Shown here: positions 19,848 to 57,623 of the stretch, piece after piece | Position numbering within the stretch: position 1 is the stretch's first letter | Layout of the letters: each line of letters starts with the position of its first letter | Assembly: GCF_000723165.1 (NCBI RefSeq) | Contig: NZ_HG322949.1 | Span: 2,931,902-2,995,901, forward strand | Origin: Janthinobacterium agaricidamnosum NBRC 102515 = DSM 9628 | Lineage (GTDB): Bacteria > Pseudomonadota > Gammaproteobacteria > Burkholderiales > Burkholderiaceae_D | DNA: 64,000 bases | Reading direction: 5' to 3' | The notes under the pieces: generated by a model | Databases searched by the model: none | Told to the model about the DNA's origin: nothing | The model's input: only the letters and a program-made list of their open reading frames with translations | Made by a program: the position numbers and the translations under genes

Positions 19848-19892
19848 GAGCCTATCCCAGTAGATGAATACGTCCCCTGCTGGGATAGGCTC
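19848..19892. mobile_element. Miniature inverted-repeat element, short 45-bp form (copy A)
   Basis: The ends are GAGCCTATCCCAG and CTGGGATAGGCTC (13-bp perfect inverted termini) around a short core that retains TAGATGAATACG, as in the full-length copies. A TTA direct duplication flanks it (19845-19847 and 19893-19895). The right-hand TTA is the TAA stop codon of the metallo-hydrolase gene. Most of the 158-bp element is internally deleted. Because the termini pair, transcripts would form a strong hairpin directly after the stop codon. Confidence 0.82.
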
Positions 19893-20840
19893 TTAATGCA
19901 GCTGGGTGTAATTGACCGGCAGCCACTCGAAGCCCTGGCCGACGCTGCGCAGACGCCCCAGGCCTGGGAACTGCATGTGGGCCGCGCCTATCATGGTGCC
20001 GTCTTTGGCGACCGTGGTGAAGACTTGCTTGCGCGTGGCGGCCGCAGCCTTCGGGTCGGCGTCGAAGTCGATGGTCACTTCCGGATGCGGCAGCTGCACG
20101 ATGGCATTGTGGATCAGGTCGCCCACCAACAGCAACTTTTGGCCCTTGCTTTCTACCATGTAGTTGATGTGGCCGGGAGTGTGGCCGTAGCTGGTCACCG
20201 CGCGAATCCCTGGCACGATTTCACTCGCGCCGCTGAACTGTTGCATGTGCTTGTTTGCGATGTAGGGCGCCAGCGACGATGTCGCGCCCTGGAAGAAGCT
20301 CTTATCGGACGCCTTATCCATATTGGCCTGGCTGAGCCAGAAATCACTGTCACGCTGATCGGCACGGACAATAGCGTTGGGGAAGACCACGCGGCCATCG
20401 GCCACCAGACCGCCAACATGGTCCGGATGCAGATGGGTGATCAACACTTCATCGACCTGCTCCGGCTGGTACCCGGAAGCCTTCAGATTGGCCAGCATCT
20501 GCCCCAGCGTAGGGCCGAACAGGCTGCCTGCGCCGGTATCGATCAGCACCAGCCTGGACCCGGTGTTGATCAGATAGCTCATCACCGAGTTTTCCAGCGG
20601 ACTGGACTCGTAGGCGCGCGCCAGTTGCTGGCCGGTCTTGGCCGGCGGCTGGTGCAAGAACTTTTCAATCGGCAGTGCGACGGTGCCATCGCTGATGGCG
20701 GTGACTTCAAAATCGCCCAGCATGATACGGAAGAAACCTGGGGCATTGGTGCCGGCCATCGGAGCCGCCGCCAGTACCGGGCTGCTGGCGGCGAACGCGA
20801 GCGCAGCCGCAAGTGGTATCAGTTTGTTGATGAATTTCAT
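19893..20840 (-). CDS. MBL-fold metallo-hydrolase, secreted
   Basis: A 315-residue protein with a signal peptide (MKFINKLIPLAAALAFAAS, cleaved near ALAAAP). It has the metallo-beta-lactamase zinc motif THLHPDHVGG, a later HTPGH histidine and the GDLIH aspartate. This resembles periplasmic MBL-fold hydrolases related to quorum-quenching lactonases or PqsE-like thioesterases; the substrate is unknown. ATG 20840 follows an AGGAAACC ribosome site, so the longer frame from 20942 is not used. Its stop codon is the target duplication of the miniature element at 19848-19892. Confidence 0.87.
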   Translation of the reverse strand: MKFINKLIPLAAALAFAASSPVLAAAPMAGTNAPGFFRIMLGDFEVTAISDGTVALPIEKFLHQPPAKTGQQLARAYESSPLENSVMSYLINTGSRLVLIDTGAGSLFGPTLGQMLANLKASGYQPEQVDEVLITHLHPDHVGGLVADGRVVFPNAIVRADQRDSDFWLSQANMDKASDKSFFQGATSSLAPYIANKHMQQFSGASEIVPGIRAVTSYGHTPGHINYMVESKGQKLLLVGDLIHNAIVQLPHPEVTIDFDADPKAAAATRKQVFTTVAKDGTMIGAAHMQFPGLGRLRSVGQGFEWLPVNYTQLH

Positions 20841-21037
20841 TTGGTTTCCTTGTGGATGAATTACGAAATGAAAGTATGCAATGAAAAGATTAGTTCGATA
20901 ATACGCATAATTCAACAAGAGTTTATGAGCCAAATTCAGCAATAAGGGTTATGGGATTTTCTGTGTGAAATTGAACTATCGAACAGAGATGGCAGACACG
21001 CCCGGCGCTGGAGTTAGGGCTGGGGTTGAGACCGACA

Positions 21038-21475
21038 TTACTCCCCCGCCCCGATCCGCAATGCATCGTACGACTTCGGCAAATGCCCCCAAATCCGCAC
21101 GATGTCGCCGACCACTTCGTGCTCCAGGCCGATCTCAATCAGTTTCGGGCAAATCCAGGCCGCATGGTTGATGATGTCCGGCTCCGGCAATGGCCCGGCA
21201 TGGATACGCTGATGGATGCCCAGGTCAAGCCATTCGACGCATAAAAATGAAAACGGCAGATGGTTACACCATGCGACCTCCCAGTTGGAAATATGGCCAT
21301 CGACCGATTTATGCCGGTACGACGGGGTCCAGCCGTCCCGCTGGCGCATGAAGCGTATCAATGCATTCCACTTGCTGTTGTCAGCGGCGCCAGGCAGGCT
21401 GCGCTGCTCGGTCATGGCGTGCGACTTTTCGCCTTGCCGAGCGCCCAAGGTATCCGCCATCATGGAACCGTTCAT
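21038..21475 (-). CDS. Conserved hypothetical protein
   Basis: A 145-residue soluble protein. The central stretch (NSKWNALIRFMRQRDGW, GHISNWEVAWCNHLPFSF, VEWLDLGI) looks like an intact small globular domain resembling the DUF6678 type, but I cannot assign a function. Several in-frame ATG codons exist near the start (21475 and two within 21 residues) and none has a strong ribosome site. It is separated from its neighbours and probably monocistronic. The upstream 200 bp are AT-rich. Confidence 0.6.
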   Translation of the reverse strand: MNGSMMADTLGARQGEKSHAMTEQRSLPGAADNSKWNALIRFMRQRDGWTPSYRHKSVDGHISNWEVAWCNHLPFSFLCVEWLDLGIHQRIHAGPLPEPDIINHAAWICPKLIEIGLEHEVVGDIVRIWGHLPKSYDALRIGAGE

Positions 21476-21681
21476 GTCGATGCAAGCTTTCTCTTTTGGT
21501 AATTTATTTCAAATATACCAAATGTCGCATCTTTTATGCAATATTATTGCTAACAAGCACCATTTCTGCTGACAGTTTTCCAGACGGCATTACATTGCTG
21601 GGCAGGCCAGGCGCCGCTGTCAAGAAAACCGGCGCCGGATTCGATTGAAATTGAATTTCACTGACGCGGGTTTGCTTATGC

Positions 21682-22167
21682 TCAGGACTGGCTGGCCGCC
21701 AGCCGCGCTGCGGCCTGGGCTTTGCGCCGTTCGGCAAAAAAACTTTTGAGAAAGGCGCCGCATTGATCCGCCAGCACGCCGCCTTCGATGGCGGTCTGGT
21801 GGTTCAATTGTTCTTGCCCGAACAAATTGACGACCGAGCCGCAAGCGCCGGTCTTCGGGTCGGCCGCGCCAAACACCACCCGTTTCAAGCGCGCATGCAA
21901 CATCGCACCGGCGCACATCACGCAGGGTTCCAGCGTTACATACAGTTCGCACCCCGGCAAACGATAATTGCCCAGCTTGTCGGCGGCAGCCCGCAAGGCC
22001 ATGATTTCGGCGTGCGCGGTCGGATCGTGGCGGCCGATCGGCTGGTTGTAGCCGGTCGCGATCACCACGCCATCCTTGACCAGCACGGCGCCGACCGGCA
22101 CTTCGCCCAAGTCCCATGCATGTTGCGCCTGTTGCAGCGCCAGTTGCATGAAATCACTATCAGGCAT
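21682..22167 (-). CDS. tadA: tRNA adenosine(34) deaminase TadA
   Basis: A 161-residue cytidine-deaminase-fold enzyme that converts adenosine 34 to inosine in tRNA-Arg(ACG). The zinc ligands and catalytic glutamate are in THAEIMAL (HAE) and [11 protein letters not shown] (PCxxC). ATG 22167 gives a normal length; a longer in-frame start at 22236 would run into queD. It overlaps the 3' end of queD by 8 nt and is therefore the distal gene of a queE-queD-tadA unit. Confidence 0.95.
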
Positions 22168-22606
22168 CGGTAATCTCTGCCCAGCAATTCGGGGTTTCAT
22201 GCAACACCAGCTTGTGCAAATGCAAGCCAGTGCCAAACCGGTCTGTGTAGGCCGCTTTCAAGATGTCGAAGGCGATTTGCGCCAGGTTTTCAACGGTCGG
22301 GATACGGTCGATGACGACGGTCTTGTGGTTCGGCAAGGTCGCCAGGAAATCGCGCACCACGCTGTCTTTTTCATACACCAGGAAGGCGTGATCCCACACG
22401 TCGACCAGGTGTTCCTTGGCCAGCGCCTTGATATCGGAAAAGTCCATGATCATGCCATTGTCCGAATTGCCTTCGGCCTGGATGATTTGGCCGACCAGCG
22501 TGATTTCCACCGTGTAGCGATGGCCATGCAGGTTGCGGCACTGGCTTTTATGATCGGGAATCCGGTGGCCGGCGTCGAATTCGAGCTTGCGTGTAATTGT
22601 CAGCAT
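22160..22606 (-). CDS. queD: 6-carboxytetrahydropterin synthase QueD
   Basis: A 148-residue enzyme that turns dihydroneopterin triphosphate into 6-carboxy-tetrahydropterin in queuosine/preQ0 biosynthesis. It has the PTPS-family cysteine/histidine motif [13 protein letters not shown], the [10 protein letters not shown] block and the conserved [11 protein letters not shown] glutamate motif. It lies 15 bp downstream of queE and overlaps tadA, consistent with one transcript. Confidence 0.94.
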
Positions 22607-57109: not shown

Positions 57110-57112
57110 CCG

Positions 57113-57300
57113 AGCTGGCGCCGCAAGTGGCGCTGCTACCCGTCAACGGACGCGACATGGAGCGCAGCGGAGGTGCCGGTGATGGCGGCGCATCATTACG
57201 CCATATTCGACTTCAATACCGTCGAACCGCCGCTGATCGATGCGCGTGCAGAGCCGGAACATGATGGACAATTCGGCATGTTCCGGGGCAGCCGTGCTGG
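57113..57300 (+). pseudogene. MBL-fold (UlaG-like) lactonase remnant
   Basis: ELAPQVALLPVNGRDMER in one frame, and after a gap AHHYAIFDFNTVEPPLIDAR in another, match two blocks of the UlaG-type metallo-hydrolase family. The upstream part is missing and the frame is broken. The remnant ends where the miniature elements begin. Confidence 0.6.
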
Positions 57301-57304
57301 TTTA

Positions 57305-57462
57305 GAGCCTATCCCAGTAGTGAGCGTCTTCTGCTGGCCGCGCCTCGGGAGCGCGGACCAGGCGTGAGGAGGAAGCGTGGCGAGCCACGCGACGACGATC
57401 AACGCAGTCCCCGTTCCTGAGGAGCGCCAGAACAGGGCGTATTCATCTACTGGGATAGGCTC
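57305..57462. mobile_element. Miniature inverted-repeat element, 158 bp (copy D1)
   Basis: A full-length element in reverse orientation to copy B. The ends are GAGCCTATCCCAGTAG and CTACTGGGATAGGCTC. A TTA flanks each side (57302-57304, 57463-57465). The right TTA is shared with copy D2. Confidence 0.88.
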
Positions 57463-57465
57463 TTA

Positions 57466-57623
57466 GAGCCTATCCCAGTAGTGAGCGTCTTCTGCTGGCC
57501 GCGCCTCGGGAGCGCGGACCAGGCGTGAGGAGGAAGCGTGGCGGGCCACGCGACGACGAGCAACGCAGTCCCCGCTGCTGAGGGGCGCCAGCAGGGGACG
57601 TATTCATCTACTGGGATAGGCTC
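57466..57623. mobile_element. Miniature inverted-repeat element, 158 bp (copy D2)
   Basis: A tandem second copy in the same orientation as D1 and nearly identical to it, separated only by TTA. Its right TTA (57624-57626) is the TAA stop codon of the adjacent minus-strand gene. Tandem copies sharing one target triplet suggest insertion next to an existing copy or unequal recombination. Confidence 0.88.

What the first reader, a model, noticed from the sequence alone, without database searches (positions are those of the whole stretch)
19848..57623. Miniature element family inserted precisely at stop codons
Five copies (19848-19892, 33713-33870, 38885-39038, 57305-57462, 57466-57623) share GAGCCTATCCC termini and a 3-bp TTA/TAA flank. 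At all four loci the right-hand triplet coincides with, or overlaps, the stop codon of the adjacent minus-strand gene: metallo-hydrolase, sensor kinase, S9 peptidase, orphan immunity gene. Because the triplet is duplicated, insertion rebuilds the stop codon on the gene side and leaves the protein unchanged. Four of four is striking. It may reflect target preference for TAA, selection against other sites, or use as a transcription terminator hairpin.
Basis: seen in the sequence. Interest (0 to 1): 0.75.

Follow-up and report, generated by a model that had tools for sequence, protein, structure and literature searches.

The report
Mobile hairpin DNA at stop codons
A small mobile DNA element that carries no gene of its own has spread through this Janthinobacterium genome; about four in ten of the copies examined sit exactly on a gene's stop codon and leave it intact, so the element can settle beside genes without changing their proteins.

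Summary
The five pieces are copies of a 158-bp non-autonomous element (MITE) with ends GAGCCTATCCCAGTAG and a TTA/TAA target duplication; one of the five (38885-39038) lacks its first 13 bp and left triplet. A genome-wide census gave 97 entries (86 paired, 11 single-ended). In 41 of 97 the flank is exactly a predicted gene's stop codon; in other Janthinobacterium genomes, 21 of 38 non-redundant copies. The target is a palindrome, RY-TWA-RY (best CTWAG), about 20-fold rarer inside genes than outside. The element begins with G and ends with C, so CTWAG is rebuilt on both sides and TAA and TAG stops both survive. Relatives without the element have the stop at the same codon at most loci compared.

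The coincidence is 2.7 times the motif prediction over bounded gaps, but equals prediction within 40 bp 3' of genes: target motif plus a 3'-end bias, not stop-codon recognition. It is no intrinsic terminator: 0 of 38 have a T-run. The likely mobiliser is an IS1031-type IS5-family element: incomplete remnants lie in this genome; five plasmid relatives have matching ends and TNA duplications.

The parts
19848..19892 (.). 45-bp minimal copy: both ends and almost no interior; flanked by TTA at 19845-19847 and 19893-19895
19893..19895 (-). TTA triplet = TAA stop of the metallo-hydrolase-fold gene 19893-20840 (ORF open to 20942)
   Evidence: PF00753
33713..33870 (.). 158-bp copy, TAA duplicated at 33710-33712 and 33871-33873
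33870..33872 (-). TAG stop of histidine kinase 33870-35210, made of the element's last C plus TA of the triplet; 27 of 29 relatives' kinases stop at the same codon, none with an element end within 400 b after it
33628..33712 (.). 85-bp sibling element, GAACCTATCCCGGCAG at one end and CTGCCGGGATGGGTGC before a TAA at the other, directly abutting the 158-bp copy
38894..39038 (.). left-truncated copy (first 13 bp of the end missing), right end GAGCCTATGCC
39039..39041 (-). TTA triplet = TAA stop of S9 peptidase 39039-41201
57305..57462 (.). 158-bp copy, first of a pair sharing one TTA (57463-57465); left TTA 57302-57304
57466..57623 (.). 158-bp copy, second of the pair; with its flanking triplets it folds at -113.4 kcal/mol as RNA, z -10.4
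57624..57626 (-). TTA triplet = TAA stop of a 162-aa ORF (57624-58112; called 57624-57923 by my gene model), no Pfam match

Best explanation
This is a MITE mobilised in trans by an IS1031-type IS5-family transposase. The transposase uses a short palindrome, RY-TWA-RY (best form C-TWA-G), duplicates the middle TWA, and inserts GAGCC...GGCTC. Because the element starts with G and ends with C, C-TWA-G is re-formed on both sides. So the edges can be hit again (tandem pairs), and a stop codon lying in the site, TAA as the triplet itself or TAG as TA plus the element's G/C, is kept. The target is rare inside reading frames of this GC-rich genome and built into many TAA/TAG stops. Purifying selection removes hits in genes and promoters, and what survives is concentrated at gene 3' ends, often exactly on stop codons. 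Shown: ends, duplications, target motif, stop coincidence, pre-existing stops in relatives, ends shared with IS5-family elements. Inferred: mobilisation in trans, and selection as the sorter.
For: 97 census entries; 72 with identical TTA or TAA on both sides; 41 of 97 exactly at stops, 35 of these 41 beside genes scoring at least 50. Target motif from 69 sites. CTWAG: 16 in 480 kb of coding against 63 between genes plus 11 at stops for 107 kb of non-coding sequence. Other Janthinobacterium genomes: 21 of 38 non-redundant copies. Within 40 bp 3' of genes the stop share equals the motif prediction, 31 of 45 (0.689) against 0.676. Relatives without the element: a single TTA at the site in 9 of 9 read at copy 5212849; a stop at the same codon in 3 of 3 each at 350437, 2123232 and 5016330, and in 27 of 29 for the window's kinase. 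IS remnants with the same ends in the genome. Five plasmid relatives: matching ends and TNA duplication in 5 of 5. The IS1031 group is described as preferring TNA with a 3-bp repeat (PMC12016507, one passage).
Against: Over bounded gaps the stop share is 26 of 52 against 0.184 predicted, and an excess remains within 80, 160 and 320 bp of gene ends (0.646, 0.585 and 0.534 against 0.455, 0.367 and 0.288). Motif plus non-coding location is therefore not enough; a bias to gene 3' ends is needed whose cause is not shown. The stop share does not rise with divergence (14 of 24, 6 of 26, 8 of 18 by tertile), which does not favour slow selective sorting. No complete mobiliser was seen in this genome, and a search with the N-terminal 126 aa found nothing better than 39% identity in the 39 other genus genomes searched. 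At 2139943 the relatives' TTA lies 6 bp away in 7 of 7; at 461496 a TAA or TAG stands near the junction in 8 of 8, but the alignments are gapped there.
Confidence: 0.85

Rival explanations
1. Insertion itself is steered to gene 3' ends, for example by supercoiling, single-stranded DNA or a factor at transcription ends, so the 3' bias arises at integration rather than by selection.
For: Stop share is 2.7 times the motif prediction in gaps up to 600 bp (26 of 52 against 0.184); convergent gaps hold 20 of 52 copies against a 0.126 motif-weighted share; no age trend.
Against: Selection against promoter and coding hits gives the same pattern; no preference for stops over other sites within 40 bp.
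Confidence: 0.2
2. Copies are kept because the hairpin serves the host: it blocks read-through between convergent genes or protects mRNA 3' ends, as proposed for REP-type repeats (recalled).
For: Very stable hairpin on both strands (-113.4 and -98.2 kcal/mol, z -10.4 and -8.9); excess in convergent gaps.
Against: 0 of 38 have a T-run after the far end; orientation relative to the stop gene is 20 against 10, not a clear bias; no element end was found in the 34 relatives' loci fetched for six other sites, nor within 400 b after the stop in the 29 kinase loci.
Confidence: 0.15
3. The stops are created by the insertion (truncated genes), so the coincidence is an artefact of reading into the element.
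For: None found; in principle a reading frame entering the element must stop somewhere.
Against: A stop is present at the same codon in relatives without the element at most loci compared; 35 of 41 stop genes score at least 50.
Confidence: 0.03

Closest known systems
IS1031 subgroup of the IS5 family (ISLrh, PMC12016507, one passage seen)
   Same: 17-bp ends beginning GAACCTGTC, TNA target with a 3-bp direct repeat, overlapping orfA/orfB with -1 frameshift (paper); the remnant here has IS5-type transposase halves and this element's ends
   Different: The window's element has no transposase; its clean duplications are TTA or TAA
ISAzo38 (Aromatoleum) and IS5-family elements on plasmids of Methylobacterium, Indioceanicola, Roseomonas and Azotobacter
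   Same: Ends of the form GARCYTATYCC, 894-911 bp, TNA duplication in 5 of 5 examined
   Different: Carry a transposase gene; N-terminus 64-76% identical to the remnant here
QMITE1 and QMITE2 of Coxiella burnetii (PMC5896051, part of the abstract and passages seen)
   Same: MITEs at gene 3' ends: QMITE2 mainly in 3' untranslated regions; QMITE1 copies overlap gene ends, one by 3 bp; in one strain a stop directly precedes a QMITE2
   Different: QMITE2 has 7-11 nt variable repeats; the passages seen describe gene extension or an indel-made stop, not systematic rebuilding of the stop
ERIC, RUP, Correia/NEMIS and BOX-type repeats (PMC10969869, PMC2229807, passages seen)
   Same: Short foldback mobile repeats, mostly intergenic, thought to be moved in trans
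   Different: Other ends and, as recalled, TA target; no stop-codon coincidence in the passages seen

Membership tests
MITE | short, no transposase gene, terminal inverted repeats | tested here: met
   68 of 86 paired copies are exactly 158 bp, others 30 to 239 bp, with inverted GAGCCTATCCC ends
MITE | target-site duplication | tested here: met
   72 of 97 census entries have the same TTA or TAA on both sides
MITE | high copy number, recent spread | tested here: met
   97 census entries; at least ten of 68 copies identical to another copy; match in 25 of 36 other genus genomes, one of them weak
MITE | mobilised by a related transposase | not testable with these tools
   Only shared ends shown
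IS5 family, IS1031 subgroup (mobiliser) | IS5-type transposase | tested here: met
   N-terminal piece of the remnant matches PF13340 over cut-off (83.3 against 34.3 bits). Against NF033580 the remnant pieces score 100.9, 61 and 49.2 bits, below the 110-bit cut-off; the two places over it are other elements. Catalytic residues were not tested
IS5 family, IS1031 subgroup (mobiliser) | 3-bp TNA direct repeat | tested here: met
   5 of 5 plasmid relatives: TAA, TCA, TAA, TAA, TTA; a sixth, on a viral contig, had no clear left end
IS5 family, IS1031 subgroup (mobiliser) | orfA/orfB joined by -1 frameshift | tested here: inconclusive
   The remnant changes frame near an A7 run, but it is incomplete; 2 of 4 annotated plasmid CDS have lengths not divisible by 3, 2 of 4 have
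intrinsic terminator | GC hairpin followed by a T-run | tested here: not met
   0 of 38 have 5 or more T in the 8 bases after the far end

The most novel reading that the evidence does not exclude
The element and its transposase have been tuned to gene ends: a palindromic target that is scarce in reading frames and built into TAA/TAG stops, with element ends (G...C) that restore the target. This makes a self-restoring insertion that can enter even the shared CTAA stop of two overlapping convergent genes without altering either protein.
Probability: 0.2. Interest if true: 0.65.

Novelty: new member of a known kind. Interest (0 to 1): 0.42.

Why it matters
It shows, with counts and empty sites, how a three-base target duplication and one matching terminal base let a mobile element use a place in a gene-dense genome where insertion costs nothing in protein sequence. 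Two copies here and three non-redundant copies in relatives occupy the shared stop of two convergent genes. It gives a testable case of whether the 3'-end bias of bacterial repeats comes from targeting or from selection, and a candidate site-choice rule for gene-neutral insertion.

Tried and rejected
Terminator function was tested by T-run and orientation and not supported. The age-trend test for selection showed no trend. The phage collection gave no match to the element; Rfam gave no match at gathering scores in the window. The full-length IS5 transposase at 5877007 (L092) has only 3-mismatch resemblances to these ends around it and different letters next to its masked edges, so it was set aside as mobiliser. 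The 951606 left flank could not serve as an empty-site test because it is itself a repeat with many hits. Of the 11 sites in the joined query, I examined six in relatives; of the loci chosen for those, one (L199) did not align across its site. Paper searches in whose listings I saw no title or abstract start describing a bacterial MITE that inserts at stop codons: (42, 72 and 77 returned no paper); most listed papers were not opened. PMC7031236 was opened for the target rule and had nothing on it (passages).

Limits. The census covers places with an exact GAGCCTATCCC end preceded by TTA/TAA, the capped 158-bp search and the first 100 places; copies with both ends worn are missed unless they lie in fetched stretches, and even there need one exact end (so the window's 38885-39038 copy is not among the 97). 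Gene calls are my own codon-usage model (707 genes, 76% coverage), which probably misses some genes and so inflates the non-coding background; one search is restricted to gaps up to 600 bp between genes scoring at least 40 for that reason and keeps 52 of the 72 clean copies. The relatives' copies are the best-scoring 41 of the first 42's capped list plus one lying beside them (one near a contig end skipped), and four named loci; they are not a random sample.
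Full report
What is there. Four of the five reported copies have both exact ends (GAGCCTATCCC) and TTA/TAA flanks. The fifth, 38885-39038, is truncated on the left by 13 bp and has no left triplet. The window lies in a 5.95-Mb single-contig genome at 2931902-2995901. The four named loci that hold the same 25-base end exactly are from two Janthinobacterium genomes, so I take the genus to be Janthinobacterium; the species is not known to me.

Census. The pattern GAGCCTATCCCAGTA with up to 2 mismatches occurs 216 times in the genome against 3 for the pattern read backwards. 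Using TWA-flanked exact ends and the 158-bp element, I fetched 73 stretches and listed 97 entries, 86 paired and 11 single-ended; 68 are exactly 158 bp, the other pairs 30 to 239 bp. In 72 the same TTA or TAA stands on both sides. Genes were called with a codon-usage model of my own.

Stop codons. In 41 of 97 entries the flank is exactly a predicted stop: 19 TAA on the right only, 14 TAA on the left only, 4 TAG on the left, 2 TAG on the right, and 2 with a stop on both sides. Of the 41, 35 belong to genes scoring at least 50 and 2 to genes under 20. Among clean duplications it is 31 of 72. Other non-coding TTA/TAA sites in the same stretches are stops in 211 of 2675, leaving out 27 that touch a gene edge. 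In other Janthinobacterium genomes, among 46 copies in 44 loci, 38 were non-redundant and 21 of these were at stops; with clean duplications 16 of 27. Two copies here and three non-redundant copies there sit at the shared stop of two overlapping convergent genes.

Target. Oriented to TAA, the site reads A/G, C/T, TAA, G/A, C/T: C 57% and T 28% before, G 77% and A 17% after (69 sites). CTWAG occurs 16 times in 480 kb of coding sequence, and 63 times between genes plus 11 times at stops for 107 kb of non-coding sequence, about 20-fold depleted in genes. The element starts with G and ends with C, so CTWAG stands on both sides after insertion. That explains why TAG stops survive (33870 in the window) and why copies insert next to copies (57305/57466; the sibling element at 33628 beside 33713).

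Is it more than the motif? Weighting all sites by the motif of the non-stop copies, stops should take 0.132 of non-coding insertions (0.154 with the motif of all copies); observed 31 of 72. In gaps up to 600 bp between strong genes the prediction is 0.184, observed 26 of 52, P about 2e-7. In convergent gaps it is 13 of 20 against 0.36 (P 0.01), in tandem gaps 13 of 25 against 0.22 (P 0.001); convergent gaps are themselves over-used, 20 of 52 against 0.126. Close to gene ends the excess fades: within 320, 160, 80 and 40 bp 3' of a stop the observed shares are 0.534, 0.585, 0.646 and 0.689 against 0.288, 0.367, 0.455 and 0.676. So stops are not preferred over other sites in the first 40 bp, and the excess is a bias to gene 3' ends. 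Whether it comes from selection or targeting is open; the stop share shows no steady change with divergence.

Empty sites. For copy 5212849, nine relatives align across the joined flanks (79-87%) with a single TTA at the site; a tenth locus did not align across it. At 350437 the stop is TAA at the same codon in 3 of 3 relatives (one of the three aligns past it); at 2123232 it is TAA in two and TAG in one; at 5016330 it is TAG in 3 of 3, judged by distance in gapped alignments. At 2139943 the relatives' TTA lies 6 bp away in 7 of 7. At 461496 a TAA or TAG stands near the junction in 8 of 8, but the alignment is gapped there. No element end with up to one mismatch is in these 34 loci. For the window's kinase, 27 of 29 relatives stop at the same codon as here (19 TAG, 7 TAA, 1 TGA); two are 4 and 5 residues longer; none has an element end within 400 b after the stop. 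So at most loci compared the stop predates the insertion.

Mobiliser. In this genome an incomplete IS5-type transposase (5881853-5882480, L094) has the end GAGCCTATCCCAGTAGAT upstream; its last part is missing beyond a masked run. A C-terminal fragment at 3451123-3451275 is followed by CTACTGGGATAGGCTC and TAAG. These pieces score below the NF033580 cut-off; the N-terminal piece matches PF13340 over cut-off. A search with that N-terminal piece found nothing better than 39% identity in 39 other genus genomes, although the MITE matches in 25 of 36 other genus genomes. In the protein database the best match to the piece is 94% identical, so close relatives exist elsewhere. Five relatives on plasmids, 64-76% identical over the N-terminus, are 894-911 bp with GARCYTATYCC-like ends and a TNA duplication in 5 of 5. 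A paper describes TNA, a 3-bp repeat and a -1 frameshift for the IS1031 subgroup (PMC12016507, one passage). The MITE shares only 16-18 bp with the remnants' ends, so it is not a simple deletion of them (sequence comparison).

Function. Both strands fold strongly (-113.4 and -98.2 kcal/mol), but 0 of 38 stop copies have a T-run after the far end, and orientation to the gene is 20 against 10. A role in blocking read-through or in mRNA stability is not excluded.

Verdict. A MITE family of the IS5/IS1031 kind, new to me (no paper holds both Janthinobacterium and 'miniature inverted-repeat' in the library searched), with a well-supported site-choice rule. The interpretation needs the target motif, the terminal G/C and the 3'-end bias instead of stop-codon precision as such.

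Noticed in passing
window 33628-33712; genome 4415839-4415997 (L082) and 1946042-1946183 (L028): A sibling element family with ends GAACCTATCCC, like those of ISAzo38; two of these three directly abut a 158-bp copy.
   Followed up: partly
window 32372-35210: In 27 of 29 relatives the kinase stop is followed at once by ATG of a reading frame that looks like a receiver domain (not compared directly); here about 510 bp with two elements separate the kinase from a response-regulator gene, so the insertions seem to split a tight operon.
   Followed up: partly
L061, left flank of the copy at genome 951606: The flank ending ATAATTTATTGGGGGTTAC is itself a repeat with many matches at 80-96% in relatives; two of the 69 listed sites adjoin its edge.
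   Followed up: no
L145, L146, L148, L149: In these four annotated plasmid relatives the transposase gene ends 4 bp from the right end, so its stop codon lies inside the terminal repeat.
   Followed up: no
L049, L056, L072, L092, L094 and others listed: Several fetched stretches hold 36-base runs of N, some beside insertion-sequence ends; left alone.
   Followed up: no
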